Shown here piece by piece: positions 7,699 to 53,992 of a stretch of DNA of 64,000 nt. Within the stretch, counting starts at the first letter, position 1, and each line of letters opens with the position of its first letter. Location of the stretch: positions 414,295 to 478,294 of the forward strand of contig JAUJOT010000001.1 in NCBI GenBank assembly GCA_030447505.1, given 5' to 3'. The translations under genes and the position numbers were made by a program. Source of the DNA: Solirubrobacteraceae bacterium. GTDB taxonomy: Bacteria > Actinomycetota > Thermoleophilia > Solirubrobacterales > Solirubrobacteraceae. A model generated the notes under the pieces. The model was not told the origin of the DNA and made no database searches. It saw nothing but the letters and a program-made list of their open reading frames with translations.

Positions 7699-7800
7699 CG
7701 GCGCAGAACTACCCGCCGCACGGGCGCGTCGATCGTTGCAGATGCCCGTGCGCCGGCTGTCGTGCGCGAAGACCGGGGGTCCTCCACCCGTCGGGACGGA

Positions 7801-32963: not shown

Positions 32964-35900
32964 TTGCCGCTCGAAGCGCGGCTGCTCTTCGGGCTGGCCT
33001 TGGCGACCGCGATCGCGTACGCCGTCACCCCCGTCGCGATCAGGCTGGCCGCGCACTTCGACTTCTACGACGCGCCGATCGGCTACAAGGGCCATGCCGC
33101 GCCGACGCCGTACCTCGGCGGTTTGGCGGTCATCACCGGCTTCGTCGTCGCGGTCCTCGCGCTGACTTCTGATGCGGCCCGGACCCTGCCGGTGCTCGGC
33201 GGGGTCCTCGTGTTGTGGGCGGTCGGAACCGTCGACGATCGCCGCACGATCCGTCCGCTGCCACGGGTCGCGGTCGAGGCGGGCCTGGCGTCGATTCTGT
33301 GGGCAGCGGGCCTCGGCTGGTCGCTCGGGCTCGGCGGCGCCGCCGACCTGCTGGCGACGGTCGTCTGGGTCATCGCCGTCGTCAACGCCTTCAACCTCTT
33401 CGACAACATGGACGGCGCGTCGAGCACGATGGCGTGCGTCGTCGCGGGCGCCGTCGCCGTGCTCGGGCTCGTGCAGTCCGACGTGTGGCTCGTCGCCACC
33501 AGCGCCGCGCTGTGCGGCGCGTGCCTGGGCTTCCTGCCGCACAACCTCTCGCGCCCGTCGGCGCGGATCTTTCTCGGCGACGGCGGCAGCATGCCGCTGG
33601 GATTCGCGATCGCGGCGCTCGTGATGATCGGCGCCTCGTCGGCGGCGGCGGAGTGGCAGGCGCTCGTCATGGGGCTGCTGCTCGTCGGCGTGCCGGCGCT
33701 CGACACGTGCCTCGTCGTCGTGTCGCGGCGCCGCCGCGGAATCTCGATCCTGACCGGCGGCCGCGACCACCTCACGCATCGCACGCATGCGCGGCTGCGC
33801 ACGGCGCACGCGTCGGTCGCGGCGCTCGGCGCCGGGCAGGCGCTGCTGGCGGCGCTGGCGCTCGTCGCGGTGCAGGGCGGCTCGGCGCTGCTCGTGGCGG
33901 CGGTGCTGCTGTACCTCGTCGCGCTGGCGGTGCTCATCGCGGTGCTGGACGGCGGGCCGCGCGCGGCGACGGCGGGAGCGGTGGCCACGGCAGCGATGCC
34001 CGCCGTCGCGGCGAACGCGGACGCCGACGACGAGGAGCGGGTGCGCGCGCCGGCCCGAGGAACGCCGACCTGGCCGGCGCTGGCGCTGGCCGCCGCGCTC
34101 GGCGTGGCGCTCGGGCTCAGCCCGTTTGCGGCGGGCTACTACGACTCCTCGATCTGGGCGCCCGCCGGCCTCGGCCTGCTGATCGTGCTGACCGCCGCGC
34201 TCATCGCCGGGCCGGTCGGCCTGCCGCGCCGCGCCGTGATCGCGCCGGCGGCGATCGCGGCGCTCGCGCTGCTGTCGCTCGCCTCGGCGCTGTGGACGGA
34301 CTCCATCGAGCAGGCCGTCGTGGAGGGCAACCGCCTGCTGATCTACGCCGCCGGGCTGGCGCTGCTCGTCGTGCTGCTGCGCAGCGATCGCGGGGCCGTG
34401 CTCGCCTTCGGCACGTTCGTCGCGGGCGCCGTCGCGGTCGCCGGCTGGGTGCTCGCCGGGATGCTCGACGGCGACGAGTCGCTGTTCCTCGGCGGGCGGC
34501 TGCACGAGCCGCTGGGCTACATCAACGGCCAGGCGAGCTTCTTCGTGCTCGCGTTCTGGCCCTGTCTGGCGCTCGCCGAGCGGCGTGGTAGCGGCGACGC
34601 GTGGGCGGCGCCGCTCGCGGGCCTCGGCGCCGCCGGGGCGACGCTGTTCGCGGGCCTCGCCGTGCTCGGCCAGTCGCGCGGCGCGGTGCTCGCCACGGCG
34701 CTGTCGCTGCTGCTCGTGCTCGCGCTGCTGCCGGGACGGCTGCGGCGGGTCGTGGCGCTGCTGATCGCCGCGGCGTGCCTGGCGCCCGCGCTGCCGGCGC
34801 TGCTGGACGTCTACCGCGGCGGCACGACGGCCGACGACCTGCGCACCGCGGCCGGGGCGCTGCTGCTGGCGGCCGCCGTCGCGGGGCTCGCCTGGGCGGG
34901 GCTCGTCGCCTTCGAGCGGCGGGCGAGCGCGTCGGGGCTGCGGATGCGGCGGGCGGTCGCGGCCGGCGTCGCGGTGCTGGCGCTCGCCGGCGTGTCGGTC
35001 GCCGTCCTGTCGGCGGAGCGGATCGGCGGCTTCCTGCACCGCCAGTACACGGCCTTCGTGACGCTCGGCGGGCCGCGCGGCGAGCCGACGGCGTCGCGCC
35101 TGGCGACCGGCGCCGGCAACCGCTACGACTACTGGCGCATCGCGGTCGACACGTGGCAGGCCAACCCGATCGCGGGCGTCGGCGCGGGCGGCTACGACAA
35201 GCCGTACTTCGCCGAGCGCACGACCGCCGAGGACATCCGCCAGCCCCACAGCCTGCCGCTGCAGGTGCTCGCCGAGCTGGGGATAGTCGGCGGGGTGATG
35301 TTCGCGGCGGCGCTCGCGCTCATCGCGGCGGGCACGTGGCGGCGCATCCGCGACGGCGGCCGCGCGCCGCTCGTCGTGGCCGGGCTCGGCGTGTCGGCGG
35401 CGTGGCTCGTGCACACGAGCGTGGACTGGATGCACCTGCTGCCGGGACTGACGGGGGTGGCGCTGCTGGGAGCGGCCGTGCTGCTGCGCCCGGTGCCGGG
35501 CAGCGGCGAGAGCGACGCAGGCGACAGCACCAGCGAGGCAGCTCCCCCGGCCGCGACGCGCCCGCGCTCGGCCCGCGCCCGGCTGGCGCCCGCGATCCTG
35601 ATCGCCGTCGCCGTGACGATCGCCGCGCTGAGCCTCAGCCGCCAGAGCCTGTCCGAGCACTACGTCGAGCGGGCGCAGTCCGCACTGGCGAGCGATCCCG
35701 AGCGCGCGCTCGTCGAGTCAAACCGCGCGCTGCGCCTGGACCGCGAGGCGATCGACGCCTACTACGCCAAGGCCGCCGCCCTGGCCCGCTTCGGCGAGGG
35801 CGACGCAGCCCGCGCGGTGCTGCTCGACGCCGCCCGCCGCGAGCCGCGGAACTTCGTGACCTGGGCACTGCTCGGCGATCTGGCGGTGCGCCAGGGCGAT

Positions 35901-36017
35901 CTCCGCGCAGCGCAGGCGAACTACCGGCGGGCGGCGCGACTGAATCCGCGCAACGTGGGCCTCGCTACGCTCGCACGGAACCCGCAGACGGCAGTCGAGC
36001 GTCTGGAAGGCGGATAG
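32964..36017 (+). CDS. Fusion: WecA/TagO-type phosphoglycosyltransferase + O-antigen-ligase-like domain + TPR
   Basis: 1017 residues. Residues of about 1-300 are a polyprenyl-phosphate glycosyl-1-phosphate transferase: DD in GTVDDRR (91-92), NAFNLFDNMDG (141-151), FLGDGGSMPLGF and a cytoplasmic HLTHRTHAR near 270. Residues of about 360-840 form a Wzy_C/ligase-like polytopic region with the large extracytoplasmic loop (NRYDYWRIAVDTWQANPIAGVGAGGYD). The last 130 residues after a membrane helix are TPR-like (DPERALVESNRALRLDREAIDAYYAKAAALARFG). TTG 32964 is the first usable start. It likely primes and polymerises or ligates a surface glycan. Confidence 0.85.
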   Translation: MPLEARLLFGLALATAIAYAVTPVAIRLAAHFDFYDAPIGYKGHAAPTPYLGGLAVITGFVVAVLALTSDAARTLPVLGGVLVLWAVGTVDDRRTIRPLPRVAVEAGLASILWAAGLGWSLGLGGAADLLATVVWVIAVVNAFNLFDNMDGASSTMACVVAGAVAVLGLVQSDVWLVATSAALCGACLGFLPHNLSRPSARIFLGDGGSMPLGFAIAALVMIGASSAAAEWQALVMGLLLVGVPALDTCLVVVSRRRRGISILTGGRDHLTHRTHARLRTAHASVAALGAGQALLAALALVAVQGGSALLVAAVLLYLVALAVLIAVLDGGPRAATAGAVATAAMPAVAANADADDEERVRAPARGTPTWPALALAAALGVALGLSPFAAGYYDSSIWAPAGLGLLIVLTAALIAGPVGLPRRAVIAPAAIAALALLSLASALWTDSIEQAVVEGNRLLIYAAGLALLVVLLRSDRGAVLAFGTFVAGAVAVAGWVLAGMLDGDESLFLGGRLHEPLGYINGQASFFVLAFWPCLALAERRGSGDAWAAPLAGLGAAGATLFAGLAVLGQSRGAVLATALSLLLVLALLPGRLRRVVALLIAAACLAPALPALLDVYRGGTTADDLRTAAGALLLAAAVAGLAWAGLVAFERRASASGLRMRRAVAAGVAVLALAGVSVAVLSAERIGGFLHRQYTAFVTLGGPRGEPTASRLATGAGNRYDYWRIAVDTWQANPIAGVGAGGYDKPYFAERTTAEDIRQPHSLPLQVLAELGIVGGVMFAAALALIAAGTWRRIRDGGRAPLVVAGLGVSAAWLVHTSVDWMHLLPGLTGVALLGAAVLLRPVPGSGESDAGDSTSEAAPPAATRPRSARARLAPAILIAVAVTIAALSLSRQSLSEHYVERAQSALASDPERALVESNRALRLDREAIDAYYAKAAALARFGEGDAARAVLLDAARREPRNFVTWALLGDLAVRQGDLRAAQANYRRAARLNPRNVGLATLARNPQTAVERLEGG

Positions 36018-36026
36018 GGAGCTTTC

Positions 36027-36367
36027 ATGCTGAAACCCACCCGGGTCTACCTCTGCGCTCTGGCCGCGTGCTCGCTCTAGCCTCTCCCGCCCTCGGCGAA
36101 GCACCCGAGGTCGATCCCGATTCCCCGTCTCGCTCGGGCAGCACGAGCGGTTCCGGCGCCAGCTCCGACACAGCGAAGCCGGCCACGCCTGCGAAGGCCG
36201 CGGAGCAGAGCGACCTGGCGGAGAGCACGCCGGAGAGCGTCCGGGCGCAGGCGCCGTCTCCGCAGGGCGGCGGAAACGTGCTCGTCCCGATCGCTGCGGG
36301 CGCGGACGTCCTCCTGCTGGGCGGCCTGGCTGGGCTGCTGCGGCGACGACGGTCTGTGGGAGGCTGA
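36027..36367 (+). pseudogene. Frameshifted VDPDSP-type small membrane protein
   Basis: The ATG at 36027 opens a signal peptide, MLKPTRVYLCALAACS, which hits TAG at 36078. One frame over, the protein continues naturally as LASPALGEAPEVDPDSPSRS, through a Ser/Ala/Pro linker, to a C-terminal helix and Arg cluster (VLLLGGLAGLLRRRR). The VDPDSP element and tail match the intact gene at 52274-52747. A one-base indel between about 36055 and 36075 would restore a roughly 113-residue protein. Either a real pseudogene or a sequencing error. Confidence 0.65.
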
Positions 36368-36371
36368 TGCT

Positions 36372-37340
36372 ATGAAGATGCTCGTCACTGGAGGAGCGGG
36401 GTTTATCGGCTCGCACCTCGCGGCGCGCTTGGTGAAACTGGGCCACGACGTCCGCGTGCTCGACAACTTCGCCACCGGTCGCCGCTCGAACATCGAGGCG
36501 ATCGGCGATGTCGAGCTTGTGGAAGGCGACATCCAGAGCTACGAGCGCGCACACAAGGCGGTGCGTGGATGCGAGTTCGTCTTCCACCAGGCGGCATTGC
36601 CGTCCGTTCCACGTTCCATTCAGGACCCGCTGACCAGCAACGCGACGAACGTCATCGGAACGCTCAACGTCCTACTGGCGGCGCGCGACGAGGGCGTCCG
36701 GCGCGTTGTCTGCGCATCTTCGTCCTCGGTCTACGGCGCTAATCCAAAGCTTCCGAAGCACGAGGACATGGCAACACTCCCGATCTCGCCGTATGCGACG
36801 GCCAAGCTGGCCGGCGAGGGCTATTGCCGGTCGTTCGGCATCGGGTACGGGCTGGAGACGGTGGCCCTGCGCTACTTCAACGTCTTCGGCACCCGGCAGG
36901 ATCCGACATCGCAGTACGCCGCGGTGATCCCGAACTTCATCACTGCGATGCTCGACGACCGGCCGGTCACGATCTTCGGAGACGGCGAGCAGTCGCGCGA
37001 CTTCACGCACGTCGACAACGTCGTGCAGGCCAACCTGCTCGCGATGGATGCATCTGATGTCTCCGGCAAGGTCTACAACATCGCCTGCGGGCGCAAGGTC
37101 ACGCTCAACGGGCTCGTCACCGAACTGGAGGTGCTTGGCGGCACGGAGATCGAAGTCGACTACAAGCCGGCCCGCGCCGGCGACGTCAAGCATTCGCTCG
37201 CCGACCTTACGCGCGCTAGGCAGAGTCTGGGTTACGAGCCCGAGGTCAATCTGCGTGAAGGCCTGAGCCGGACGATCGCGGCCTACCGGGCCGAGCGCCT
37301 GGAACCGCGGAGCGCCGCAGCGCGTCTGTCAACTGCATGA
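36372..37340 (+). CDS. NAD-dependent sugar epimerase (UDP-glucose 4-epimerase-like)
   Basis: 322-residue extended SDR. NAD motif G-x2-G-x2-G in VTGGAGFIGSHLAARL, active-site Ser/Thr region CASSSSVYGANP, catalytic Y-x3-K in SPYATAKLAGEGY, and the substrate region RYFNVFGTRQDPTSQYAAVIP. It likely supplies an activated sugar (UDP-GalNAc or UDP-Gal type) for the surface polysaccharide. ATG 36372 has GGGAGG about 8 nt upstream. The stop overlaps the following glycosyltransferase start (ATGA). Confidence 0.9.
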   Translation: MKMLVTGGAGFIGSHLAARLVKLGHDVRVLDNFATGRRSNIEAIGDVELVEGDIQSYERAHKAVRGCEFVFHQAALPSVPRSIQDPLTSNATNVIGTLNVLLAARDEGVRRVVCASSSSVYGANPKLPKHEDMATLPISPYATAKLAGEGYCRSFGIGYGLETVALRYFNVFGTRQDPTSQYAAVIPNFITAMLDDRPVTIFGDGEQSRDFTHVDNVVQANLLAMDASDVSGKVYNIACGRKVTLNGLVTELEVLGGTEIEVDYKPARAGDVKHSLADLTRARQSLGYEPEVNLREGLSRTIAAYRAERLEPRSAAARLSTA

Positions 37341-38527
37341 GCTGCGCCGCCCCTCGCCGCGTCCGAGTCATGCGCATCATCGCGCGGCTCAACGTCGGCG
37401 GCCCGGCTCACCACGTGAGCATCCTGTCGGGGCGTCTCGACCCGACGCGCTACGAGACGCTTCTATTCGCAGGTCGCCTCGGTTCGGGCGAAGGGTCGTT
37501 CGAGCACCTTCCGGCGCATCACGGTGCCGAAGTGCGCTACATCGACGGTCTCGGACCCGAGCTCGAGCCTCGTCAGGACATACGTGCCCTGGTGTCCCTC
37601 GCGTGCGCGATGCGACGCTTCCGGCCCCACATCGTTCACACGCACACGGCGAAGGCCGGAACGCTCGGGCGGATCGCCGCCCGAGCAGCTCTGGGACCGC
37701 GGCCGATCGTCGTACACACCTACCACGGGCACGTGCTGTCGGGCTACTTCGGGCCAGTGAAGACGCGCGCCTTCCGCGCGATTGAGCGGGTGCTCGCGTC
37801 GATGAGCGACCAGTTGATCGGAGTGAGCAGGGCGACTGTCGATGACCTGGTCGCGATGCGCATTGCGCCGCGCTCGCGCTTCACCGTGATACCGGTCGGG
37901 CTGGACTTGGACGACTTCCTGGATGTCGAACCGTCGGCTGGCGACGCCTTTCGACGCGAGGTCGGCGCAACTGAAGACGACCTCCTGGCGCTGTTCGTCG
38001 GGCGTCTGGCCCCGATCAAGCGGCTCGACGTTCTCCTTGAGGGGGTGGCGATCGCGCGTCGTGAGGGTGCGCCACTGCGGCTGGCGGTCGTCGGCGACGG
38101 AGAGCTGCGAGCTGAACTCGAGGCGAAGGCCCGGGCGCTCCACCTCGGTGGCGCCGTGACGTTCTGCGGGTTCCGTACGGACCTGACGTCGACCGTTGCC
38201 GCCGCCGATGTAGCAGTCCTGTCGTCAGATAACGAGGGGACGCCGGTCGCGCTCATCGAAGCAGCCGCCGCCGCCCGGCCGGCTGTCAGCACACGCGTCG
38301 GCGGCGTTGCCGACATTGTCCGTGCCGACACCGGGATCCTTGTCGCCGCAGGCGACTCGCAAGAGCTTGCGCGGGCGCTGGTACGGATCTGGCAGAACCC
38401 GGCGGCGCGATCACGCATGGGAGACGCCGGTCGGGCCCACGTTCGCGACGCGTTCAGCGCGCAACGCCTCGTGCGGGACATCGACGACCTCTACATGAGA
38501 CTCCTCACAGCCCCGCAAGGCGGCTGA
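37337..38527 (+). CDS. Glycosyltransferase family 4
   Basis: 396 residues, GT-B fold. The N-terminal domain begins RIIARLNVGGPAHHVSIL, the usual glycine-rich acceptor loop. The C-terminal domain has LFVGRLAPIKRLDVLLEG and the E-x7-E nucleotide-sugar motif in NEGTPVALIEAAAAARP. It probably adds one sugar of the repeat unit in the cytoplasm. ATG 37337 overlaps the epimerase stop; the first 11 residues before RVMRII could be an extension. An asnB remnant follows. Confidence 0.9.
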   Translation: MSCAAPRRVRVMRIIARLNVGGPAHHVSILSGRLDPTRYETLLFAGRLGSGEGSFEHLPAHHGAEVRYIDGLGPELEPRQDIRALVSLACAMRRFRPHIVHTHTAKAGTLGRIAARAALGPRPIVVHTYHGHVLSGYFGPVKTRAFRAIERVLASMSDQLIGVSRATVDDLVAMRIAPRSRFTVIPVGLDLDDFLDVEPSAGDAFRREVGATEDDLLALFVGRLAPIKRLDVLLEGVAIARREGAPLRLAVVGDGELRAELEAKARALHLGGAVTFCGFRTDLTSTVAAADVAVLSSDNEGTPVALIEAAAAARPAVSTRVGGVADIVRADTGILVAAGDSQELARALVRIWQNPAARSRMGDAGRAHVRDAFSAQRLVRDIDDLYMRLLTAPQGG

Positions 38528-38533
38528 GCCTCG

Positions 38534-38990
38534 ATGTGCGGCATCTGCGGATGGATCGGACGAGGCGCCGATCCCACGGAGCACGGTCGTGCGATTGCCC
38601 TCTCAATGGCATCAGTCATCGCGCATCGCGGCCCTGACGGCGGCGGCGCGCGTGAACTTCGCGGCGAGGGCGTTTCGGGCTGGTTCGCGCACCGGCGGCT
38701 GCGCGTCCTGGACACATCCGAAGCCGCTACTCCGCAAGGCTTGCGGACATCTTCTGGCGGCCGAGGTCTGGACGCGCCCGAAGCACGGCTTCGGAGTGCC
38801 GATGGTTCGACGGCGAGCTGGGGACCGTCTACGGCGACGAGATCCTCGCCGCCGACTCACGACTGAGCAGATGGTTGGAGTCTGCGCCGCTCGCCCGCAT
38901 CTGGGCTGAGCATTCCGCAGGGACCGATCGTCACGGAGCTCGCCTTGTGGACGCTGTTGACGCTCGAGCAGGAGAACCACGCGAAAGACG
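38534..38990 (+). pseudogene. asnB: Asparagine synthetase (glutamine-hydrolysing) remnant
   Basis: The N-terminus is recognisable as AsnB/amidotransferase class II: MCGICGWIGRG with catalytic Cys2, then IAHRGPDGGG, up to HRRLRVLDTSEAATPQ. It then jumps in another frame to the far C-terminus (LLAAEVWTRPKHGFGVPM), shifts again (RWFDGELGTVYGDEILAADSRLS) and again (LWTLLTLEQENHAKDG). Most of the glutaminase and all of the synthetase core, some 380 or more codons, are missing. A polysaccharide-locus amidotransferase has therefore been deleted and frameshifted. Confidence 0.8.
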
Positions 38991-39000
38991 GCAAGTACCG

Positions 39001-39702
39001 TCATCCAGTCTCAGTGCTGCGAGCGCCCGGCTTGTGCGCGAACAGCAGCAGGCCGTATGCCGGATCGAACCCCATCAAACGGCCGAGCGCGATTTGGAGC
39101 GGAATCGTGAACCGGCGTCGCTTCGACGTCAGCGCCTGCCGATAGACCTCGATCCCTTCCAGCCCGGCAACGACGCAAAGCGCCCACAGGTCGTGTGACG
39201 GCCACGGCCGCACATGCGTGACGTCTGCGCTCCAGACCTGGTGTGGGTGGTGAGCGTTCGGGGTGCCGATCACGAGGACGCCGCCAGGTTTGAGCAGATC
39301 GACCGCGTGCTGTAGGAACGCGAGTCCTAGCTCAAGCGGCAGGTGCTCGAGCAACTCGAGCATGCATATCGCATCGAACGTGTCGTTGACGCTCAGGAAG
39401 TCGCCGTAGTCGTGGTGGTGACGTAGCTCCGGGTCTGCGGTGACATAGCGGGCACCGATTCCCATCCGCTCAAACACCGACTCCCACAGACGATCGCCCG
39501 CGCCGACATCGAGGATGCTCGCCACCCCTGCAAGGTGCTGCTTGAACAGGTCCGCCGCCGGTCCCGACGGAGGATTTCGCTCGCGCCAACCGCGGTCGAT
39601 CTTGATCAGTGGCGCGCCAGGATACGTCGGCCGGAGCTCCATGAGCTTCCAGTACGTCTTGCTGAGATCGGTGATCGGAGTGGTGGTGTCGCTAGAGCTC
39701 AT
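39001..39702 (-). CDS. SAM-dependent methyltransferase
   Basis: 233 residues from ATG 39702. SAM motif I ASILDVGAGDRLWESVF, with YVTADPELRHHHDYGDFLS, the catalytic-domain strand FDAICMLELLEHLPLELGL and KPGGVLVIGTPNAHH. The frame stays open upstream but loses coding character, and a GGAGGA lies about 20 nt before the chosen ATG. It probably methylates a sugar or glycolipid of the surface polymer. It faces the opposite way to the surrounding glycosyltransferases. Confidence 0.85.
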   Translation of the reverse strand: MSSSDTTTPITDLSKTYWKLMELRPTYPGAPLIKIDRGWRERNPPSGPAADLFKQHLAGVASILDVGAGDRLWESVFERMGIGARYVTADPELRHHHDYGDFLSVNDTFDAICMLELLEHLPLELGLAFLQHAVDLLKPGGVLVIGTPNAHHPHQVWSADVTHVRPWPSHDLWALCVVAGLEGIEVYRQALTSKRRRFTIPLQIALGRLMGFDPAYGLLLFAHKPGARSTETG

Positions 39703-39823
39703 GGTTCTCGGATCGTCCTCCGCACGGTGTCTGTGCCTCCAGGTCGATCGTAACGTTCGACGTGCCCGCGGTAGCCTCCGCCTGTCTCCGACCCACGATG
39801 ATGTTCCGGCTACGCTGGCGTCC

Positions 39824-39928
39824 ATGCTCCCCGCTGCGGCGCTGATCCGCGCTCTCCAGAGGCACCGCTTCGACGGCGTTTCCCGGATGCTCGACGGCCG
39901 TCGCGCGACGCCCGGCAGCCGTTGCTGA
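39824..39928 (+). CDS. 34-codon leader ORF before glycosyltransferase gene
   Basis: A short ORF starting MLPAAALIRALQRHRFD, preceded by a TACGCT box (39811-39816) 7 nt before its ATG. It ends 4 bp before the ATG of the next glycosyltransferase, which lacks its own promoter and Shine-Dalgarno. It may be a small translated leader that couples translation into that gene, or the relic of a longer gene. No homology recognised. Confidence 0.35.
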   Translation: MLPAAALIRALQRHRFDGVSRMLDGRRATPGSRC

Positions 39929-39932
39929 CGCG

Positions 39933-40910
39933 ATGGCCCGAGTCGGCTTGAAGGTGGACCTCGTGAGCTACGTGGACCCGCGGATCCGTACGGGGGGAGG
40001 CGAGCTGGCGATGCGAGTTCACCTCGAAGAGGCGGCCCGCCGCGGTCACGTCGTGAGGCACACGCACCGCTTTCCTCGGTTCACGGCGGATTGCCATCAG
40101 CGGCCAGACGTGACGATCATGGCAGACGTCTGGAATCTGCCGGGCCACTGGTCGCATCCCCTCCGACGGATCGCCAGCGCCTCTCATGTCGATCGAGCAG
40201 CCACGGAGTACCGAGATCGCGTCCGGCGCGTGATCGACGACAGGCGCTTTGTTCACTACGACAACGCATATGTGGACGTCTGCCGTCAGAGCTATCTGCC
40301 CTGCAACGGCAAGATGCTCAACAGAGATGTCTGCTTGCTGCGCAACCAGCGGTGCAGGGTCCTACGTGAGCAGACACGTCCCTTGTACGAGCGCAGCATC
40401 GTGAACTGCTTCGTGTCACCGTTGCATCAACAGGTGGTACTCGGGATGGTGGGACCCACAGCCTCGCGGGGGAGCGTCGTTCGCCCGCTCCTGGACCCGG
40501 CCTCCTTCTCCGTGTCGTCGGGTGCACGAGACATCCCCTTGCTCTACGCCGGCCCGCTCGTCGAGGCCAAGGGCGCCAAAAGCATGATCGCGCATCCCCG
40601 GGCTCGAGAGATCGTAGGAGTTGGTCCCGCGCCAACGGCCGGGAGCACCTGGCTTGGAACGTGGTTGGGCTATGTGGCCCCGAGCGAGATGCCCAAGATC
40701 TATGCTCGAGCACGGGAGTTCATCTTCCTCCCGAGATGGCCGGAACCACAGGGGCGAGTGGTAGTCGAAGCAGCGCTGTCGGGTTGTCTGCTGCATGTCA
40801 ACAGCCGGGTCGGGGCGCTCAGCTTCGATCTTCCGCCGGACGCGCCGGCGCTGTCGAGGGGAGCATCGGCGGAATGGTGGACTCTCATCGAAGAGCTCGC
40901 TCGCTCGTGA
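39933..40910 (+). CDS. Glycosyltransferase (GT-B, GT4-like)
   Basis: 325 residues. It starts VGLKVDLVSYVDPRIRTGGGELAMRVHLEEA with the Gly-rich acceptor loop of GT-B enzymes and has PLLYAGPLVEAKGAK at the domain junction. It ends in a shortened nucleotide-sugar region (FIFLPRWPEPQGRVVVEAALSGC) where the second Glu of E-x7-E is kept. Cys-containing stretches (CRQSYLPCNGKMLNRDVCLLRNQRC) are unusual. The stop overlaps the next glycosyltransferase GTG. Confidence 0.78.
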   Translation: MARVGLKVDLVSYVDPRIRTGGGELAMRVHLEEAARRGHVVRHTHRFPRFTADCHQRPDVTIMADVWNLPGHWSHPLRRIASASHVDRAATEYRDRVRRVIDDRRFVHYDNAYVDVCRQSYLPCNGKMLNRDVCLLRNQRCRVLREQTRPLYERSIVNCFVSPLHQQVVLGMVGPTASRGSVVRPLLDPASFSVSSGARDIPLLYAGPLVEAKGAKSMIAHPRAREIVGVGPAPTAGSTWLGTWLGYVAPSEMPKIYARAREFIFLPRWPEPQGRVVVEAALSGCLLHVNSRVGALSFDLPPDAPALSRGASAEWWTLIEELARS

Positions 40911-42040
40911 GAACCGACCTCTGCACCGAGGCACAGAGCCCGGCCACAACACGGCGAGCCCACGGCTCGGCTGTGCGTGTGCTCTTTGACGATCGCCGCG
41001 GCGTCTACGTTCCGTTTACCGGAATCGGCATGGTCGCCACGCTTCTGTACGAAGCGCTGCGACATGAACCTGCCGTCGAACTCGTGCCAGTGTCATCCCT
41101 CGGGCTGAAAGGTGCCGATTCAGGGCTTACCGGGCCGACCGTCGTTCGAAAGCTGTACATCGACCAAGTCGCGCTCCCGCTGCGTGCGCGGCGCAAGGTT
41201 GATGTCTACCACGCGCTCTACCACGAGGCGTCACCACTGCTGTTGCGTCCACTCGTCGTCAATATCTATGACTTCAGCATTCTCACGAGCGCTGCGTCCT
41301 ATAGCAGCAAGCAGCGCGCCTACTACGGCGGGCTGCTCCGACTGCTCGCGCGACGAGCGCACACCGTCGTCGTCTCCTCGGAATGGACCGCGCGCGAGAT
41401 GGACGCGTGGTGCGGGCGGCTTCGCGTGCGCGTCGTACCGTGCCCGCTGGATCCGATGTATTTCGAGCCCGTCGTCGCGAGTGCTGTCGAATCAACACTG
41501 ACCGCTCTGGAACTCGTTGGATCTGAGTACGTTCTGTATTCCGGCGGCCTCCATGCACGCAAGTCCTTGGCGGTCCTGTTCGAGGGCGTTGCGAGGGCGC
41601 AGACGTGGGGAGCGTTCAACGGCCCACTCGTGCTCACGGGAGCGCCCGAAGCGACAGCGCAGAGCCTCGCGGTTCGTTCCGGCTGTGAGACGAGGTTCAC
41701 GGGCGTTCTTCCACGCCCGATGATCCGCGACCTCTATGCCGGCTGCGCCGCCGTGGTCAGCGCGTCGGTCAACGAAGGGTTCGGCTACTCGGCGGCGGAG
41801 GGTGCTGCAATGGGTCGGCCGGTAGTCTGTCCAGATCGTGGCGCACTTGCGGAGACTGCCGGATCGGCTGCGATGACATTCCGCGCGGAGGACGCGCGCG
41901 GACTCGCTGGTGCACTCGGCGAGGCTGCCCATGGTGGGCGCAACGCGGCGCTCATGCAAGCGCGAGCTGAGGCACGGAGATTCGCTCCCGCGAAGATCGC
42001 CAAAGAGATGATCGGCTGTTATCAGGAGGCCGCATCGTGA
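40907..42040 (+). CDS. Glycosyltransferase family 4
   Basis: 377 residues from GTG 40907, which overlaps the previous stop. After a Thr/Arg-rich N-terminus the GT-B core shows VRVLFDDRRGVYVPFTGIGMVATLLYEAL, EYVLYSGGLHARKSLAVLFEGVA and VSASVNEGFGYSAAEGAAMGRPVVCPD, the E-x7-E nucleotide-sugar site. Predicted mannosyl- or rhamnosyltransferase-like function in the repeat-unit assembly; donor unknown. The stop overlaps the start of a short junction ORF. Confidence 0.86.
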   Translation: MRTDLCTEAQSPATTRRAHGSAVRVLFDDRRGVYVPFTGIGMVATLLYEALRHEPAVELVPVSSLGLKGADSGLTGPTVVRKLYIDQVALPLRARRKVDVYHALYHEASPLLLRPLVVNIYDFSILTSAASYSSKQRAYYGGLLRLLARRAHTVVVSSEWTAREMDAWCGRLRVRVVPCPLDPMYFEPVVASAVESTLTALELVGSEYVLYSGGLHARKSLAVLFEGVARAQTWGAFNGPLVLTGAPEATAQSLAVRSGCETRFTGVLPRPMIRDLYAGCAAVVSASVNEGFGYSAAEGAAMGRPVVCPDRGALAETAGSAAMTFRAEDARGLAGALGEAAHGGRNAALMQARAEARRFAPAKIAKEMIGCYQEAAS

Positions 42041-42084
42041 CGCCTGGCACCCGTTCCTGGCCAACCCCATTTCGATACGCGTGA
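42037..42084 (+). CDS. Junction mini-ORF between two glycosyltransferase genes (diverged)
   Basis: GTG 42037 overlaps the upstream stop as GTGA. Fifteen codons later its TGA (42082-42084) overlaps the downstream GTG 42081 as GTGA. The peptide MTPGTRSWPTPFRYA shares only M-T-x3-R-S with the MTARHRS family. The start-to-start distance is 44 bp, which keeps the same frame rule as the longer copies. It may be a degenerate relative or an independent case of the same arrangement. Confidence 0.35.
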   Translation: MTPGTRSWPTPFRYA

Positions 42085-43109
42085 ACGAGCATTCCAGCGC
42101 TCACGCCGAGGCACGCGCCCGCAGGACCACATCCAGTTGCTGGACCGAGGTCACCGCGTTGATCCCATGTCACAACGCGGCCTCGGACATCAGCCGAGCC
42201 CTGCAGAGCATCCGCAATCAGAGCCTCGTGCCCGCAGAGGTGATCGTGATCGATGATGCTTCCACCGATGCATCATCGGCAGTGGCCCAACGCCACGGCG
42301 CGCGCGTCGAACGCCATCGCGCCCAGCGCGGGGCCGCTGCGGCGCGGAACACCGGACTCCGCGCGGCGGCGACACCACTCGTGGCCTTCCTCGACGCCGA
42401 CGATGCGTGGGAGCCTCACCATCTGGAGATGATGCGCCGCGGTGTGAGCGAGGCGCCAGACGCCGTCCTGTGGCTCTCTGGGAGTAGCCGTGAGACATCC
42501 GCAGGGACGTTCGCGGGTTTCGCCCCAGCCGCTCGCCACGCGCAGGATGTCGAGCCAGTCCATCTTCTTCTACAGCATGTTGTGGCCACGACGAGCGGAG
42601 CGGTCGTCCTGCGGGACGCCGCCCTCGCCGAGGGTGGATTCGACGAGTCGGTCGACTACGTTCCGTCGAGCTGCGAGGACTTCGATCTCTGGCTGCGACT
42701 GGCCGCCAGAGGCCGCGTTCGCGCCCTCGACACGGTTACGGTGCGTTATCTCGTCTCAGACGCGCAGCGCACCGCAGCGCGTCTGGAGGGGAACGAGCGA
42801 GCGCGGTTGTGCAGCGTCTCGCGCGCGCTTGACGGCCTGCACGCGACGGCGCAGACCGAACGCCGGGTCTGGGCAGCCACCTACTATGACCTCGGGAAAT
42901 GGCACCTGAAGCACGGATCCAGACGGACGGCGCGACGACGTCTGCGGAGCTCCCTCAGGTACGTGCCACGTCAACCGCAGACTTGCGCGTGGCTCGCGGT
43001 GTCCATGCTGCCGCCGGCGCTGGTGGGGCTTGGCCGGCGCGCCGTGCGCCGTGCGCGTGGACGCCGCGGCGACCCGGCCGTTCCCCCTGCTGCTTCGACG
43101 CTCGCGTGA
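42081..43109 (+). CDS. Glycosyltransferase family 2
   Basis: 342 residues, GT-A fold. The start TALIPCHNAASDISRALQSIRNQ and VIVIDDASTDASS mark the nucleotide-binding part; PLVAFLDADDAWEPHHLEMM contains the D-x-D. The later SCEDFDLWLRLAARG carries the catalytic-base ED motif. Arg-rich C-terminus. GTG 42081 overlaps the mini-ORF stop. The next gene begins 6 bp after the stop. Confidence 0.9.
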   Translation: MNEHSSAHAEARARRTTSSCWTEVTALIPCHNAASDISRALQSIRNQSLVPAEVIVIDDASTDASSAVAQRHGARVERHRAQRGAAAARNTGLRAAATPLVAFLDADDAWEPHHLEMMRRGVSEAPDAVLWLSGSSRETSAGTFAGFAPAARHAQDVEPVHLLLQHVVATTSGAVVLRDAALAEGGFDESVDYVPSSCEDFDLWLRLAARGRVRALDTVTVRYLVSDAQRTAARLEGNERARLCSVSRALDGLHATAQTERRVWAATYYDLGKWHLKHGSRRTARRRLRSSLRYVPRQPQTCAWLAVSMLPPALVGLGRRAVRRARGRRGDPAVPPAASTLA

Positions 43110-43115
43110 GTCATC

Positions 43116-44219
43116 GTGCCGCAATCGGCTCGCGAAACAGTGCTACACATCGCGAAGGCGACCGGGATCGGCGGAAGCGAACGGCATCTCCTCGACCTGC
43201 TGCCGGCTCTAGGCGAGGCGGGACACGACGTCCGTCTGTGCCTGCTGGAGTCGCCATCGCATCCGATCGATGCGCTTGCACAAGGGTTCGAGGACCGCGG
43301 CGTGCCCGTGTCACGCCTAAGCATCCGTGGCTCGGCAGATGTCCGGCTCGTCCGGAGGCTGCACGACGTGAGCGCTCGCGCGCAGATCGTCCACACGCAC
43401 CTGGTTCACGCTGACATCCACGCCGGTATGGGCGTCAGGACGCATCGGTCCCGACTGCCGCGGCTCGTGACGACCATCCACAGCGAGCGGCGCGGCGACA
43501 CGCTTCCGGCGCGGCTGATGATGAGGTACCTGAGCCGGCGCTTCGATCGGTGCATCGTCATCTCGGAAGCGGCGCGCGTTGCGGCGGTAGGACGGCTTGG
43601 TTTCAAAGACGGCGTTCAGATCGAGTTGATCCACTACGGGGTTCGCGTCGGGGAGTGCTCGGACGATCTTGCCGCGAAACGCCGCGGTCTCGTCGTACAT
43701 TCCAGGCTCGTAGCCGGAAAGAACGTAGACGACGTAGTACGCGCGTTCGCCGCCCTCGCTGAACCGGATCTCACGCTCACCATCGTTGGCGATGGGGAGC
43801 ATCGACCGCTGATCGAGCACGTCGCCCAGAGGCTTGGAGTCCGATCTCGCGTCACGATGCTCGGCCACGTGGACGACGTGTGGCCCGTGCTGTATGGCGG
43901 CGAGCTCTGGATTTCGATGTCAGAGACGGAGGGGTTCGGACTCGCGCTCGTCGAGGCGATGGGTGCCGGGCTGGCGACCATCTGCACCGACATCCCCGCG
44001 CACCGCGAGGTGGCCGCGGGATCGGCCGTATTGGTCCCGGTCGGGGATGTTGAGGCGGCTACCCACGCGCTCCGCCGCCTGCTAGGCGATCCATCCCACA
44101 GGAAGAAGCTGGGCGAGGCCGGCAGCGCGAGAGCAGCGGCGTTCTCCATTGAGAGGATGGCCCGTCGAACCTCGCAGGTGTATGAGGCGATGCTGTCCGG
44201 AAGATCTATCGCAGACTGA
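43116..44219 (+). CDS. Glycosyltransferase family 4
   Basis: 367 residues. The acceptor-domain loop is ATGIGGSERHLLDLLPAL; the donor domain has HSRLVAGKNVDDVVRAFAAL, LTIVGDGEHRPLIEHVA and MSETEGFGLALVEAMGAGL, with E-x7-E complete. Start GTG 43116 comes 6 bp after the previous gene. It belongs to the same polysaccharide operon. Confidence 0.9.
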   Translation: MPQSARETVLHIAKATGIGGSERHLLDLLPALGEAGHDVRLCLLESPSHPIDALAQGFEDRGVPVSRLSIRGSADVRLVRRLHDVSARAQIVHTHLVHADIHAGMGVRTHRSRLPRLVTTIHSERRGDTLPARLMMRYLSRRFDRCIVISEAARVAAVGRLGFKDGVQIELIHYGVRVGECSDDLAAKRRGLVVHSRLVAGKNVDDVVRAFAALAEPDLTLTIVGDGEHRPLIEHVAQRLGVRSRVTMLGHVDDVWPVLYGGELWISMSETEGFGLALVEAMGAGLATICTDIPAHREVAAGSAVLVPVGDVEAATHALRRLLGDPSHRKKLGEAGSARAAAFSIERMARRTSQVYEAMLSGRSIAD

Positions 44220-44284
44220 CCGCTCGGGCTGCTCGAACTGCGGCCGAAACGGGCGCTCACAAATCAATCTGCGAGGCTTGACGG

Positions 44285-46450: not shown

Positions 46451-46459
46451 GCGGCGCCG

Positions 46460-46469
46460 AGTCTAGTAT
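46460..46469. promoter_or_regulatory. Bidirectional promoter: overlapping -10 boxes sharing TA
   Basis: AGTCTAGTAT holds TAGACT leftward (46465-46460) and TAGTAT rightward (46464-46469), overlapping at the central TA. They lie 9 nt and 6 nt from the divergent ATGs at 46450 and 46476 in a gap of 25 bp. The geometry is the same as at 26247-26256. Confidence 0.55.
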
Positions 46470-46475
46470 TGGCCG

Positions 46476-47267
46476 ATGCCAGCTCAGGTTCGCGATCGCG
46501 CCGATCTGATCGACGTCTCGGTCTGCGTCCCCGTCTACCGGCGCCACAGCGAGCCAAACGTGGGATCGCTCGCATCACAGCTTCCGGCAGCGGCGGGGGC
46601 ACTGCGCGCCGAGCTCATCGTCGTCCTCAACGGCATCCGGGAGCAGGATGTCCCTCTGCCGCTATCCGGAGCGACCCTGATCAGGCACGAGCGCAATCGC
46701 GGAGTGCCGATCGCATGGAACGTCGCGGCACGAGCAGCTGAGGGCAGGACACTCGTCTTCGTCAATGACGACGTCGATATGGGACCAGAATCCCTCGCAC
46801 TCCTGCATAACGCGTTGTGCGAGTCGGACGTGGGCGTCGCAGGGCCGGTGGGAACGCGCTGGGACATCGCGACGCCGTGTCATCAAGCATGGGTCGACAC
46901 GCGCGCATTGGCGGCCGGTGCGACCGCCGAATGCGAAGTCGTCTCGGGCTTCTTCTTCGCGACGCCGGCATGCACGTGGCGTGAGGTTGGTGGATTTGAC
47001 GAGGCGTACAGTCCTTGTGGCTTTGAGGAGGTCGACTACTGCACCGCCGTACGTCTCGAGCTCGGCCTGAAGTGCGTCGCGGTCGCCGGTGTCACCCATG
47101 CGCACGAGTTCGGCATCTCCTCGGCACGCCCGTGGCGCCGCGTGAAGTGGGACGGGCACAGCGAGCGCCTCGGCCGCATTGCCGAGCGCAACCGCAACCA
47201 CTTTCGAACCAAATGGACGGCCAGGGCCACTCGCTTAGGCGAAACCCCGATCGGTGAGAGCAGCTAG
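46476..47267 (+). CDS. Glycosyltransferase family 2
   Basis: 263 residues, GT-A fold. DVSVCVPVYRRHSEPN and LIVVLNGIREQDVPL form the N-terminal nucleotide-binding part; GRTLVFVNDDVDMGPESL contains the D-D-x-D metal site; GGFDEAYSPCGFEEVDYC gives the GFDE and base region of rhamnosyltransferase-like GT2 enzymes. It has its own leaderless promoter (TAGTAT, 6 nt before the ATG), separate from the upstream operon. Confidence 0.88.
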   Translation: MPAQVRDRADLIDVSVCVPVYRRHSEPNVGSLASQLPAAAGALRAELIVVLNGIREQDVPLPLSGATLIRHERNRGVPIAWNVAARAAEGRTLVFVNDDVDMGPESLALLHNALCESDVGVAGPVGTRWDIATPCHQAWVDTRALAAGATAECEVVSGFFFATPACTWREVGGFDEAYSPCGFEEVDYCTAVRLELGLKCVAVAGVTHAHEFGISSARPWRRVKWDGHSERLGRIAERNRNHFRTKWTARATRLGETPIGESS

Positions 47268-47272
47268 AGCGC

Positions 47273-50323: not shown

Positions 50324-50334
50324 GGATCGTGCGC

Positions 50335-50964: not shown

Positions 50965-51016
50965 TGAGCCGATAGTAGCCAAGCCTGTGCCGCTGAACCC
51001 GTCGTCCTTGGTGCTC

Positions 51017-51994
51017 TCACACCACCGCAGCCTCCGCCTGCTGGAAGCTGATCACGTCCGCGAGGATCCCGTCGAGCGACCGCGTCGGCTTCCACCCCAC
51101 CGCCGCCTCGACCTTCGACACGTCCGGATACCGCCGCGGCATGTCCTCGAAGCCCTCCTCGTAGGCCTCGTCGTACGGCACGAGGACGATCTCCGACTCC
51201 GACCCCGTCAGCTCGCGCACCCGCTCCGCGAGCCCCAGGATCGAGATCTCCTCCTGCGAGCCGATGTTGAAGACCTCGCCGTACGCGGCGTCGCCCAGCA
51301 GCATGAGGTCGATGAGGGCCTCGACGACGTCGCCGACGTGGCAGAAGCAGCGTGTCTGCGTGCCGTCGCCGAAGACGGTCAGCGGGCGCTCCCCCAGCGC
51401 GGCCGAGACGAACTTCGGCACGACCATCCCGTAGCGCCCGGTCTGGCGCGGCCCGACCGTGTTGAACAGCCGCGCGACGACCGTCGGCAGCTTGCGCTCC
51501 TTCCAGTACGCGAGCGCGAGGAACTCGTCGATCGCCTTCGAGCAGGCGTAGGACCAGCGGCCGGTCGTCGAGGCGCCCATGACGAGGTCGCCGTCCTCGC
51601 GAAACGGAAACTGCGTCGACTTGCCGTACACCTCGCTCGTCGAGGCGATGAAGACCGGCTTGCGCTTCTTGGCCGCCTGGGCGAGCACGACCTCGGTGCA
51701 GTGCACGTTGGTCTCGATCGTCCGTACCGGGCTCTCGACGATGAGGTCGACGCCGACCGCGGCCGCCAGGTGGTAGACGATGTCGGCCTCGTCGACGAGC
51801 TCGGCGACGATCGACGGGCTCGCGCACGTCTCGATGATGTAGCTGAAGCGGGGATCGACCTTGAGGTGGCGAACGTTGTCGATCGAGCCGGTCGAGAGGT
51901 CGTCGAGGACGTGCACGCAGTGCCCGCGCCCGAGAAGCTGTTCGGCGAGGTGCGAACCGATGAAACCCGCTCCGCCGGTGATGAGGAACCGCAA
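51017..51994 (-). CDS. NAD-dependent nucleotide-sugar epimerase/dehydratase
   Basis: 325-residue extended SDR. ITGGAGFIGSHLAEQLLGRG binds NAD; IASTSEVYGKS and WSYACSKAIDEFLAL hold the catalytic Ser/Thr and Y-x3-K; the ARLFNTVGPRQTGRYGMVVPKF stretch is like UDP-glucuronate decarboxylases and related 4,6-dehydratases. The exact sugar cannot be fixed. Start TTG 51994 is preceded by AAGGCGAAGG. It is separated from the lipoprotein gene by 52 bp. Confidence 0.87.
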   Translation of the reverse strand: MRFLITGGAGFIGSHLAEQLLGRGHCVHVLDDLSTGSIDNVRHLKVDPRFSYIIETCASPSIVAELVDEADIVYHLAAAVGVDLIVESPVRTIETNVHCTEVVLAQAAKKRKPVFIASTSEVYGKSTQFPFREDGDLVMGASTTGRWSYACSKAIDEFLALAYWKERKLPTVVARLFNTVGPRQTGRYGMVVPKFVSAALGERPLTVFGDGTQTRCFCHVGDVVEALIDLMLLGDAAYGEVFNIGSQEEISILGLAERVRELTGSESEIVLVPYDEAYEEGFEDMPRRYPDVSKVEAAVGWKPTRSLDGILADVISFQQAEAAVV

Positions 51995-52273: not shown

Positions 52274-52747
52274 TCAGCGCGCCGCGCGACGCCGCAGCAG
52301 CAGCCCGACCAGGCCGCCTACCAGGAGAACGCCCGCGCCGGCGCCGAGGACGGCGGCGAGTCCGGTGACACCATCGGGCGCAGCGGCCTGCGCCCTGCGC
52401 TCGGCGGCTGCGCCCGCCGCCGCCCGCTCCGCCGCCACGTCGTCGGTTGTGCGGTCACCCGCGCCTGACGGCTCGCGCGGCGCTTGCGGTGGCGTCGTGC
52501 CGGCGTCATCGGCCTCCACTCCCGCCCCGAAGAGCGGGGCATCTCGGGTCCCGGGCGACCTTCGCTGCTTCTGGGTCTTCGGCGCGGCCCGCTCGCGAGC
52601 ACGGTCGATCGGCAGCTCGTATTCCCTCCCGCTCGGGGAATCGGGATCGACGAAGACCTGGTCGTCCTGGGCGGCGGCGACCGGAGCCGTGACGGCAAGC
52701 CCGCAGAGCAGCAGCAGCAAGGGTCCCTTGCACCTCAAGGTCAGCAT
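52274..52747 (-). CDS. Small VDPDSP-type membrane-anchored exported protein
   Basis: 157 residues. Signal peptide MLTLRCKGPLLLLLCGLAVTAPVAAAQ; just after the cleavage site comes VFVDPDSPSGREYELPIDRAR. A long Ala/Arg/Glu-rich linker follows, and the C-terminus has a Gly-rich helix with an Arg stop (VLLVGGLVGLLLRRR). The VDPDSP element recurs in the frameshifted gene at 36027. A surface-attached protein is the best reading; function unknown. The TATCCT box (minus strand, 52760-52755) is 7 nt before the ATG. Confidence 0.75.
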   Translation of the reverse strand: MLTLRCKGPLLLLLCGLAVTAPVAAAQDDQVFVDPDSPSGREYELPIDRARERAAPKTQKQRRSPGTRDAPLFGAGVEADDAGTTPPQAPREPSGAGDRTTDDVAAERAAAGAAAERRAQAAAPDGVTGLAAVLGAGAGVLLVGGLVGLLLRRRAAR

Positions 52748-52816: not shown

Positions 52817-53992
52817 ATGGCGATGCCCCCCACCCGCGTGAGAGCGCACCACTGTCGGATGAGCCTCGTCGCGCTGTCGTGTTGCCTGCTGCTCATGCTG
52901 CTCGGCGCCGCCAACGCCCGCGGGGCGGTTCTCGAAAAGGGCTTCTGGGGCCCGATCGCGGTCGACGGCAGGTCGCAGTTTCCGCTCTACGAGCAGCTCG
53001 GCGTCACGATCTACCAGACGTCGCTGTGGTGGATGTCGGCGGCGCCGAGCCGCCCGGCGCGTCCGCGCGACCCCGATGACCCCGCCTACCGATGGCCGCC
53101 GCAGATCGATGAGGCGATCAGGCAGGCCCGGCGCCACGACATGAAGATCCTCATCATGCTGATCGGATCCCCGCCATGGGCCAACGGCGGCCGGTCGAAG
53201 GAATACGCGCCGCGGAACCCGACCGACTTCGCCGACTTCGCACGCGCAGCCGCCAAGCGCTATCGCGGCGTCCGCCACTGGATGATCTGGGGCGAACCGT
53301 CGCGCTCGCACAACTTCAAGCCGTTCGTGCAACAGCCGCTGGGCACGCGAATCACGGCCGCTCAGAAGCGTGCGCCGAGGCGCTACGCGCGCCTGCTCGA
53401 CAAGGCATACGGTCAGCTCAAGGCCGAGCGCCGCTCAAACCTCGTCATCGGAGGCAACACGTACGTGACGGGGGAGGTACGTCCCCCCGACTGGGTCAGG
53501 AGCATGAAGCTGCCCAACGGCCGACCGCCGCGGATGGACCTCTACGGACACAACCCCTTCTCGTTTCGCAACCCGAATCTGCGCAACCCGCCGTCGACAG
53601 AGGACCTCGTCGACTTCTCCGACCTCGGCCGCTTCGACAAGCTGATCCAGCGCTACCTCGGGCGACCGCGTCACAAGCGCATCCGGCTGTTCCTGTCGGA
53701 GTTCACGATCCCGACCGCTCGCGACCGCGAGTTCAACTTTCACGTCTCGCGCAAGACCCAGGCAAAATGGATCACCAACGCGTTCAGGGTCGCGCGCAAG
53801 GTCGATGCCGTCGCTCTCGGCTGGGTACACCTCTACGACGAGCCTCCGGTTCCGGGTCAGACCTCGGTCAAGGGTGGTCTGCTCACGCACGACGGCCGGC
53901 GCAAGCGCGGCTTCTACGCGTTTCTGCGCGGTGCCCTCACGCCCGCTCAGCGTGCAGAGGAGCGCAGGCGCCTGCGAGCTCGTATCCGGTAG
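52817..53992 (+). CDS. Secreted glycoside-hydrolase-like protein (clan GH-A type)
   Basis: 391 residues. The N-terminal region has a hydrophobic export helix (MSLVALSCCLLLMLLGAANARG). The TIM-barrel-like body includes YEQLGVTIYQTSLWWMSAAPSRP and RHWMIWGEPSRSHNF, where Glu fits the acid/base position, and IRLFLSEFTIPTARD, where Glu fits the nucleophile. The C-terminus is Arg-rich. It may cleave or trim the surface polysaccharide made by the locus (inference). A decayed paralogue lies at 60174-60737. Confidence 0.75.
   Translation: MAMPPTRVRAHHCRMSLVALSCCLLLMLLGAANARGAVLEKGFWGPIAVDGRSQFPLYEQLGVTIYQTSLWWMSAAPSRPARPRDPDDPAYRWPPQIDEAIRQARRHDMKILIMLIGSPPWANGGRSKEYAPRNPTDFADFARAAAKRYRGVRHWMIWGEPSRSHNFKPFVQQPLGTRITAAQKRAPRRYARLLDKAYGQLKAERRSNLVIGGNTYVTGEVRPPDWVRSMKLPNGRPPRMDLYGHNPFSFRNPNLRNPPSTEDLVDFSDLGRFDKLIQRYLGRPRHKRIRLFLSEFTIPTARDREFNFHVSRKTQAKWITNAFRVARKVDAVALGWVHLYDEPPVPGQTSVKGGLLTHDGRRKRGFYAFLRGALTPAQRAEERRRLRARIR

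What the first reader, a model, noticed from the sequence alone, without database searches (positions are those of the whole stretch)
32964..36017. Three-in-one polysaccharide enzyme: priming transferase, ligase-like domain and TPR
A WecA/TagO-type phosphoglycosyltransferase is fused to a Wzy_C/WaaL-like membrane domain and a TPR end, 1017 residues. Initiation and a late polymerisation or ligation step are usually separate proteins. A separate Wzy-like gene also exists at 48132, so this domain may act as ligase to the wall.
Basis: partly seen in the sequence, partly recalled or inferred. Interest (0 to 1): 0.62.

Follow-up and report, generated by a model that had tools for sequence, protein, structure and literature searches.

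The report
Fused glycan-starting and glycan-attaching membrane enzyme
In a group of soil bacteria, the enzyme that starts a surface sugar chain on the inside of the membrane and the enzyme that should attach the finished chain on the outside are made as one protein, usually encoded beside a small membrane-anchored protein that is the likely attachment point.

Summary
One 1017-residue ORF (32964-36014, stop to 36017) joins a WecA-like polytopic phosphoglycosyltransferase (PGT), an O-antigen-ligase (Wzy_C/WaaL) domain and a TPR domain. It is not an artefact. The same full-length fusion occurs in 14 genes of 13 Solirubrobacterales genomes (43-82% identity to the window copy), and three more genomes have contig-end copies that cross the junction. 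All catalytic motifs are conserved. The predicted model matches MraY, WaaL and TPR structures. Loop charge places the PGT site in the cytoplasm and the ligase loop and TPR outside. Some relatives carry the halves as separate genes. No fusion appeared outside the order in class and phylum samples.

The main new finding is a partner. A small exported protein with a disordered middle and a C-terminal membrane anchor (LCD) occurs in 31 of 232 genomes of the order, all of which carry this ligase clade. It lies within 232 bp of the ligase half at 25 of 36 places, fused or not. In the window the copy beside the fusion is broken; an intact copy lies at 52274-52747.

Best reading: a dedicated O-oligosaccharyltransferase fused to its own initiating enzyme, loading glycan onto the LCD protein. 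Fusion and topology are well supported; the acceptor is inferred.

The parts
32964..33947 (+). PGT domain (residues 1-328), WecA/MraY-like, 11 TM helices, N-terminus outside; invariant D91 D92 N144 D147 D150 D206 D268 H269 H272
   Evidence: Pfam PF00953; invariant residues; MraY fold Z 33.7, rmsd 2.2, 281 aligned; positive-inside count
33948..34070 (+). cytoplasmic disordered linker (residues 329-369)
   Evidence: pLDDT under 50 at 332-367; K/R-bearing inside loop; dN/dS 0.93
34071..35486 (+). O-antigen-ligase (Wzy_C/WaaL) domain (residues 370-841)
   Evidence: Pfam PF04932; WaaL 7tpg_B Z 21.8, rmsd 4.6, 383 of 403 aligned, model residues 368-846; TfpM/PEP_O_lig_1 nearest NCBIfam models
35010..35258 (+). 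outer catalytic loop (residues 683-765) with R712, R720, R725, R752, E756 and the HX10G histidine H762
   Evidence: columns identical in every copy that covers them; outside by charge rule
35640..36014 (+). TPR domain (residues 893-1017) outside the membrane, after a last TM helix at 870-892
   Evidence: profile search, TPR fold Z 16.1, topology
36027..36367 (+). broken copy of the LCD partner gene directly after the fusion: early in-frame stop, C-terminal half readable in another frame
   Evidence: sequence; profile match to positions 102-168 only, G000:C3:450440-450649
36372..37340 (+). SDR nucleotide-sugar epimerase (TviC/GalE-like); SDR genes also adjoin the fusion or the stand-alone PGT in many relatives
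   Evidence: Pfam/NCBIfam, gene order in relatives
37337..38527 (+). GT4-type glycosyltransferase
   Evidence: Pfam PF00534/PF13439
40661..42040 (+). glycosyltransferase (group 1)
   Evidence: Pfam PF13692
42081..43109 (+). glycosyltransferase (family 2)
   Evidence: Pfam PF00535
43116..44219 (+). glycosyltransferase (group 1)
   Evidence: Pfam PF00534
44285..45904 (+). Wzx-like flippase (weak)
   Evidence: NCBIfam WZX_like, E 1.5e-9, far below its own cut-off
46476..47267 (+). glycosyltransferase (family 2)
   Evidence: Pfam PF00535
48132..49691 (-). second Wzy_C protein (polymerase or second ligase), also with HX10G at H407
   Evidence: Pfam PF04932, 36 bits; motif
51017..51994 (-). second SDR dehydratase/epimerase at the far end of the cluster
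   Evidence: Pfam
52274..52747 (-). intact LCD partner: signal peptide with AxA site, VDPDSPSGREYELPIDRAR, disordered segment, LFGAGV, TM helix, RRR tail; proposed acceptor
   Evidence: alignment A3, genome search E 3.3e-48
52817..53992 (+). secreted GH39/PslG-like glycoside hydrolase, divergent from the LCD gene (start inferred)
   Evidence: homologues next to fusion/LCD in relatives; fold: PslG 5bx9 Foldseek E 1.3e-15, query TM 0.67; invariant E121, E256

Best explanation
The protein is a bifunctional, two-faced glycoconjugate enzyme. [quoted passage not shown] The glycosyltransferases of the adjacent cluster extend the glycan and a Wzx-type flippase turns it over. On the outer face the ligase domain of the same protein transfers the finished glycan from undecaprenyl diphosphate to a dedicated acceptor, most likely the small exported, C-terminally membrane-anchored LCD protein. 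The outer TPR domain helps to hold that acceptor. It works like the dedicated O-oligosaccharyltransferases (TfpO, TfpM, PglS, and WsfB for its ligase-TPR layout), with its own initiating enzyme fused on. Shown by sequence, structure model and comparative genomics: the single conserved ORF, three intact domains, catalytic residues, topology, and linkage of the LCD gene to the ligase half. Inferred: both activities, the LCD protein as acceptor, and the TPR role. Not known: which sugar is transferred, and whether the glycan is short or polymeric.
For: Fusion: full length in 14 genes of 13 genomes; contig-end copies crossing the junction in G471, G481 and G058. PGT: DD, N-x2-D-x2-D, GD and H-L-T-H motifs invariant; MraY fold Z 33.7. 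Ligase: WaaL fold Z 21.8; HX10G histidine and six arginines identical in all covering copies; TfpM best named model for 14 of 16 members and PEP_O_lig_1 for 7 of 16; best PDB sequence match is an oligosaccharyltransferase, weak at E 0.014. Topology: short-loop K+R averages 27.1 inside against 1.9 outside; an 11th TM leaves the PGT C-terminus inside, where the ligase must begin. Partner: 31 of 31 LCD genomes carry the ligase clade; 25 of 36 LCD places lie within 232 bp of the ligase half, 30 of 36 within 20 kb, and the other six are on contigs without it; none of 12 genomes with only a stand-alone PGT has LCD. O-OTases with a single substrate are usually encoded next to it, and PglL types favour disordered Ala-rich regions (PMC12645811). 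WsfB of Paenibacillus alvei, a predicted S-layer O-OTase, has Wzy_C plus a C-terminal TPR (PMC2943079).
Against: No activity, expression or glycan data. No curated equivalog cut-off is reached: TfpM 32.5 of 600 bits, WecA 97 of 326 bits. In this genome the LCD copy next to the fusion is broken and the intact one is 16 kb away, with only 8 Ser/Thr in its 84-residue segment. G080 and four other ligase genomes have no LCD at E 1e-6. The Fisher test ignores shared ancestry; the LCD profile was built from copies found beside the fusion or ligase plus the window's distant copy; G028 was added to the ligase list from a weaker hit (without it, 30 of 31). LCD could be an assembly partner or regulator rather than a substrate. 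The WaaL match has rmsd 4.6.
Confidence: 0.5

Rival explanations
1. The Wzy_C domain is a polymerase, or a ligase to a cell-wall or lipid acceptor. The fusion joins initiation to polymerisation or wall attachment, and LCD is an assembly or chain-length partner.
For: Polymerases and ligases share Wzy_C and cannot be separated by sequence alone (PMC12645811 makes this point for WaaL against O-OTases). LCD is a small membrane protein encoded with the ligase. The second Wzy_C gene at 48132 shows that the locus needs more than one such step.
Against: The nearest named families and structures are O-linking transferases. The second Wzy_C gene could be the polymerase. Two LCP proteins elsewhere are candidates for wall attachment. 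The LCD exported part looks disordered, not a folded co-polymerase domain.
Confidence: 0.27
2. The fusion is real but functionally plain: two enzymes of one pathway were joined when neighbouring genes merged, and the join only fixes stoichiometry or co-location.
For: PGT and ligase are overlapping neighbours in G412 and neighbours 1.3 kb apart in G499; G001, same genus, has the ligase half alone with its PGT elsewhere. The linker evolves near neutrally. One origin for the PGT side is not rejected (p-AU 0.35), so splits may be losses.
Against: The join is kept over deep divergence (43-50% identity) in about ten genera of two families.
Confidence: 0.2
3. The open frame is an assembly artefact or the protein is inactive.
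For: One relative (G036) has its first about 70 residues out of frame, and the G086 junction is masked.
Against: Independent assemblies, conserved catalytic residues and dN/dS well below 1 in all three domains.
Confidence: 0.03

Closest known systems
Dedicated O-oligosaccharyltransferases TfpO/TfpM/PglS
   Same: O-antigen-ligase-type domain with an outer catalytic histidine; usually encoded next to the single protein they modify
   Different: Here the N-terminus is fused to a PGT; the linked protein is not a type IV pilin but a disordered membrane-anchored protein; TfpM model score far below cut-off
WsfB of Paenibacillus alvei (predicted S-layer protein O-OTase)
   Same: Gram-positive, Wzy_C domain plus C-terminal TPR (PMC2943079)
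   Different: No PGT domain described; substrate is an S-layer protein. Similarity is by description, not aligned here
WaaL O-antigen ligase
   Same: Fold over 383 residues (7tpg_B, Z 21.8) and HX10G motif
   Different: WaaL acts on lipid A-core; nothing here points to LPS; extra PGT and TPR domains
WecA/TagO polytopic PGTs
   Same: PF00953, catalytic motifs, 11 TM helices with N-terminus out
   Different: WecA equivalog score 97 of 326 bits; H-L-T-H in place of H-I-H-H (WecA motif from general knowledge); fused to a ligase; the genome has two other PF00953 proteins
Pseudomonas PslG (GH39) in an exopolysaccharide locus
   Same: The secreted hydrolase next to LCD has this fold, inside a glycan cluster
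   Different: About 16% identity, no activity known, not itself the fusion

Membership tests
Polytopic phosphoglycosyltransferase (PF00953) | Pfam score over gathering cut-off | tested here: met
   91 bits against 27
Polytopic phosphoglycosyltransferase (PF00953) | Catalytic Asp/Asn/His motifs and MraY-type fold | tested here: met
   Invariant in 17 copies; MraY Z 33.7
WecA (TIGR02380 equivalog) | Curated equivalog cut-off | tested here: not met
   97.1 of 326 bits
WecA (TIGR02380 equivalog) | UDP-GlcNAc as donor | not testable with these tools
   needs an enzyme assay
O-antigen ligase / Wzy_C superfamily (PF04932) | Pfam cut-off, WaaL fold, HX10G histidine and conserved Arg | tested here: met
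   61.1 bits against 31.7; Z 21.8
O-linking oligosaccharyltransferase TfpM (NF058641) | Curated equivalog cut-off | tested here: not met
   32.5 of 600 bits, although it is the best-matching model
O-linking oligosaccharyltransferase PglL/PglS | PglL_A and Wzy_C_2 domains | tested here: not met
   No match to either in the Pfam scan at E 0.1; PMC12645811 gives these as markers
Dedicated O-OTase (TfpO/TfpM/PglS kind) | Gene tightly linked to one exported substrate gene | tested here: inconclusive
   Linkage to one exported-protein family is shown: 25 of 36 LCD places within 232 bp, across fused and split ligases; that LCD is the substrate is not shown
Dedicated O-OTase (TfpO/TfpM/PglS kind) | Substrate is a type IV pilin or pilin-like protein | tested here: not met
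   The linked LCD protein has an AxA signal-peptidase site in 10 of 12 copies and a C-terminal anchor; the five copies scanned have no Pfam match
Dedicated O-OTase (TfpO/TfpM/PglS kind) | Transfers glycan to Ser/Thr | not testable with these tools
   needs glycoproteomics
Wzy polymerase | Polymerises repeat units | not testable with these tools
   Wzy_C does not separate polymerase from ligase

The most novel reading that the evidence does not exclude
These bacteria hold their surface polysaccharide through a dedicated membrane-anchored protein. One two-faced enzyme both starts the chain in the cytoplasm and joins it to that protein outside, a protein-anchored capsule route distinct from LCP wall ligation, with a PslG-like hydrolase to trim or release the glycan.
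Probability: 0.27. Interest if true: 0.72.

Novelty: new variant of a known kind. Interest (0 to 1): 0.55.

Why it matters
The first and last enzymes of a lipid-linked glycan pathway act on opposite membrane faces and are normally separate. A conserved natural fusion is Rosetta-stone evidence that this PGT and this ligase serve one pathway, and it offers one polypeptide on which both steps can be tested. The linked LCD family gives a concrete candidate acceptor for protein O-glycosylation in Solirubrobacterales, where the library searches gave no relevant paper. It also bears on how Gram-positive bacteria other than Staphylococcus and Streptococcus retain surface polysaccharides, which a recent review leaves open (PMC12220298).

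Tried and rejected
Sequencing artefact: rejected by independent assemblies. G086 looked like an adjacent PGT plus ligase pair, but the junction is an N run, so it says nothing. The first Foldseek list showed only MraY and TPR; WaaL appeared only in the VIA-align second look. LCD outside the order: none among 296 phylum genomes. Literature searches for a PGT-ligase fusion returned none in the titles, abstracts and term counts seen; subscription papers are not covered. Single origin against repeated fusion: the PGT tree shows two fused groups, one clade not rejected (p-AU 0.35), unresolved.

Full report
Observation. The ORF at 32964-36017 encodes 1017 residues from a TTG start. Pfam finds Glycos_transf_4 (91 bits) and Wzy_C (61.1 bits), both well over cut-off; single TPR models fall just short, but a family profile and the predicted fold show a clear TPR domain. 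The AlphaFold2 model (mean pLDDT 79.9, 17-row alignment) matches MraY over residues 1-306 (Z 33.7, rmsd 2.2), WaaL over 368-846 (7tpg_B, Z 21.8, rmsd 4.6, 383 of 403 residues) and TPR proteins over about 888-1017 (Z 16).

The fusion is real and conserved. Titled records identify the lineage as Solirubrobacterales, mostly Solirubrobacteraceae. Among 232 genomes of the order, 14 genes in 13 genomes match the query over nearly its whole length in one open frame; three more genomes (G471, G481, G058) have copies cut by contig ends that still cross the junction. In one of the 14, G036, the first 70 residues are out of frame. Between the window and its closest relative (82% identity), dN/dS is 0.14 for the PGT, 0.23 for the ligase, 0.19 for the last TM helix plus TPR, and 0.93 for the linker. 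No full-length fusion was seen outside the order in 296 genomes of the phylum or 399 of the class.

Split relatives. In G412 the two genes overlap; in G499 they lie 1.3 kb apart; in G395 and G397 about 3-4 kb apart; G001, from the same genus, has the ligase half at 64% identity without a PGT and a PGT on another contig. Trees of both halves place the split copies among or beside fused ones; one clade for the fused PGTs plus three probable fused or derived-split rows is not rejected (p-AU 0.35). Whether the fusion arose once and split, or arose twice, is open.

Topology. With an N-out start, K+R in short loops averages 27.1 on the inside and 1.9 on the outside. The PGT has 11 TM helices, so its C-terminus is inside, where a WaaL-type domain must begin. 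The large ligase loop (683-765), with R712, R720, R725, R752, E756 and H762 of the HX10G motif, is outside, as is the TPR domain. The PGT catalytic residues D91, D92, N144, D147, D150, D206, H269 and H272 are identical in all 17 rows; the ligase residues are identical in every row that covers them. PglS H324 and Arg residues are assigned the corresponding roles by alignment to WaaL structures in PMC12800693.

A partner protein. Directly next to the fusion in most relatives is a small gene of one family (A3): signal peptide with an AxA site (10 of 12), a conserved VDPDSPxxKEYxLPLxxAR stretch, a variable, low-complexity segment rich in Ala, Gly, Ser, Thr and Pro (taken as disordered from its sequence), an FGxG motif, one TM helix and an Arg-rich tail. 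The five copies scanned have no Pfam match. A position-blind search of 232 genomes found it in 31, all of which hold the ligase clade; 25 of 36 places lie within 232 bp of the ligase half, fused or separate, five more lie on the same contig up to 20 kb away, and the other six sit on contigs without that ligase; it is absent from the 12 genomes that have only a stand-alone PGT. It was not seen in the phylum sample outside this order. The counts are not corrected for ancestry, the profile was seeded mostly from copies near the ligase, and G028 entered the ligase list from a weaker hit. In the window the copy after the fusion is broken (36027-36367), and the intact copy (52274-52747) bounds the far end of the glycan cluster; in G067, G412 and G499 the LCD gene also lies 8-20 kb from the ligase.

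Pathway context. The cluster 36372-51994 holds SDR epimerases, several glycosyltransferases, a weak Wzx-like flippase and a second Wzy_C protein. A secreted protein with the fold of PslG, a GH39 hydrolase of an exopolysaccharide locus, sits next to LCD or the fusion in many relatives. The genome has two other PF00953 proteins and two LCP proteins elsewhere, so neither general initiation nor wall attachment need depend on this enzyme.

Mechanism. Most likely the PGT starts a glycan on undecaprenyl phosphate, cluster enzymes extend and flip it, and the ligase domain moves it to LCD, held by the TPR. Dedicated O-OTases are typically linked to their substrate gene, and general ones favour disordered Ala-rich segments (PMC12645811). 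WsfB, a predicted S-layer O-OTase of a Gram-positive, has the same Wzy_C-TPR layout (PMC2943079). Substrate identity, donor sugar and activity are inferred. A polymerase or wall-ligase role cannot be excluded by sequence.

Verdict. This is a new variant of a known kind: an O-antigen-ligase/O-OTase-type enzyme fused to its initiating PGT. I found no published PGT-ligase fusion in the library searched. The dedicated LCD partner makes the function testable.

Noticed in passing
window 36372-51994: Glycan cluster with third-position GC mostly 0.75-0.83, against mostly over 0.9 in the flanking genes and 0.95 in the fusion itself: a variable, probably exchanged island beside a core-like fusion gene.
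   Followed up: partly
window 36027-36367 and 52274-52747: Two copies of the LCD gene bracket the glycan cluster, the inner one broken; the island may have been inserted or exchanged between them.
   Followed up: partly
window 52817-53992: Secreted PslG/GH39-like hydrolase family next to LCD or the fusion in many relatives, barely detected by Pfam; possible glycan trimming or release enzyme.
   Followed up: partly
L014 (G082:C263) 1072-2961 and 2958-4034: Two ligase-type genes in tandem, the second cut by the contig end; a possible duplication with separate roles.
   Followed up: no
G080:C2:206839-207720 (L045 16840-17769): A second ligase C-terminal piece (52% identity) near the fused gene, with duplicated SDR and hydrolase pieces: local duplication and decay.
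   Followed up: no
L044 (G036) 7560-7770: First about 70 residues of the fused protein are out of frame: frameshift or assembly error in this one genome.
   Followed up: no
window 49595-50323 and 50335-50982 (-): A membrane protein and a lipoprotein-like ORF without usable family matches next to the second Wzy_C gene; perhaps chain-length or export partners.
   Followed up: no
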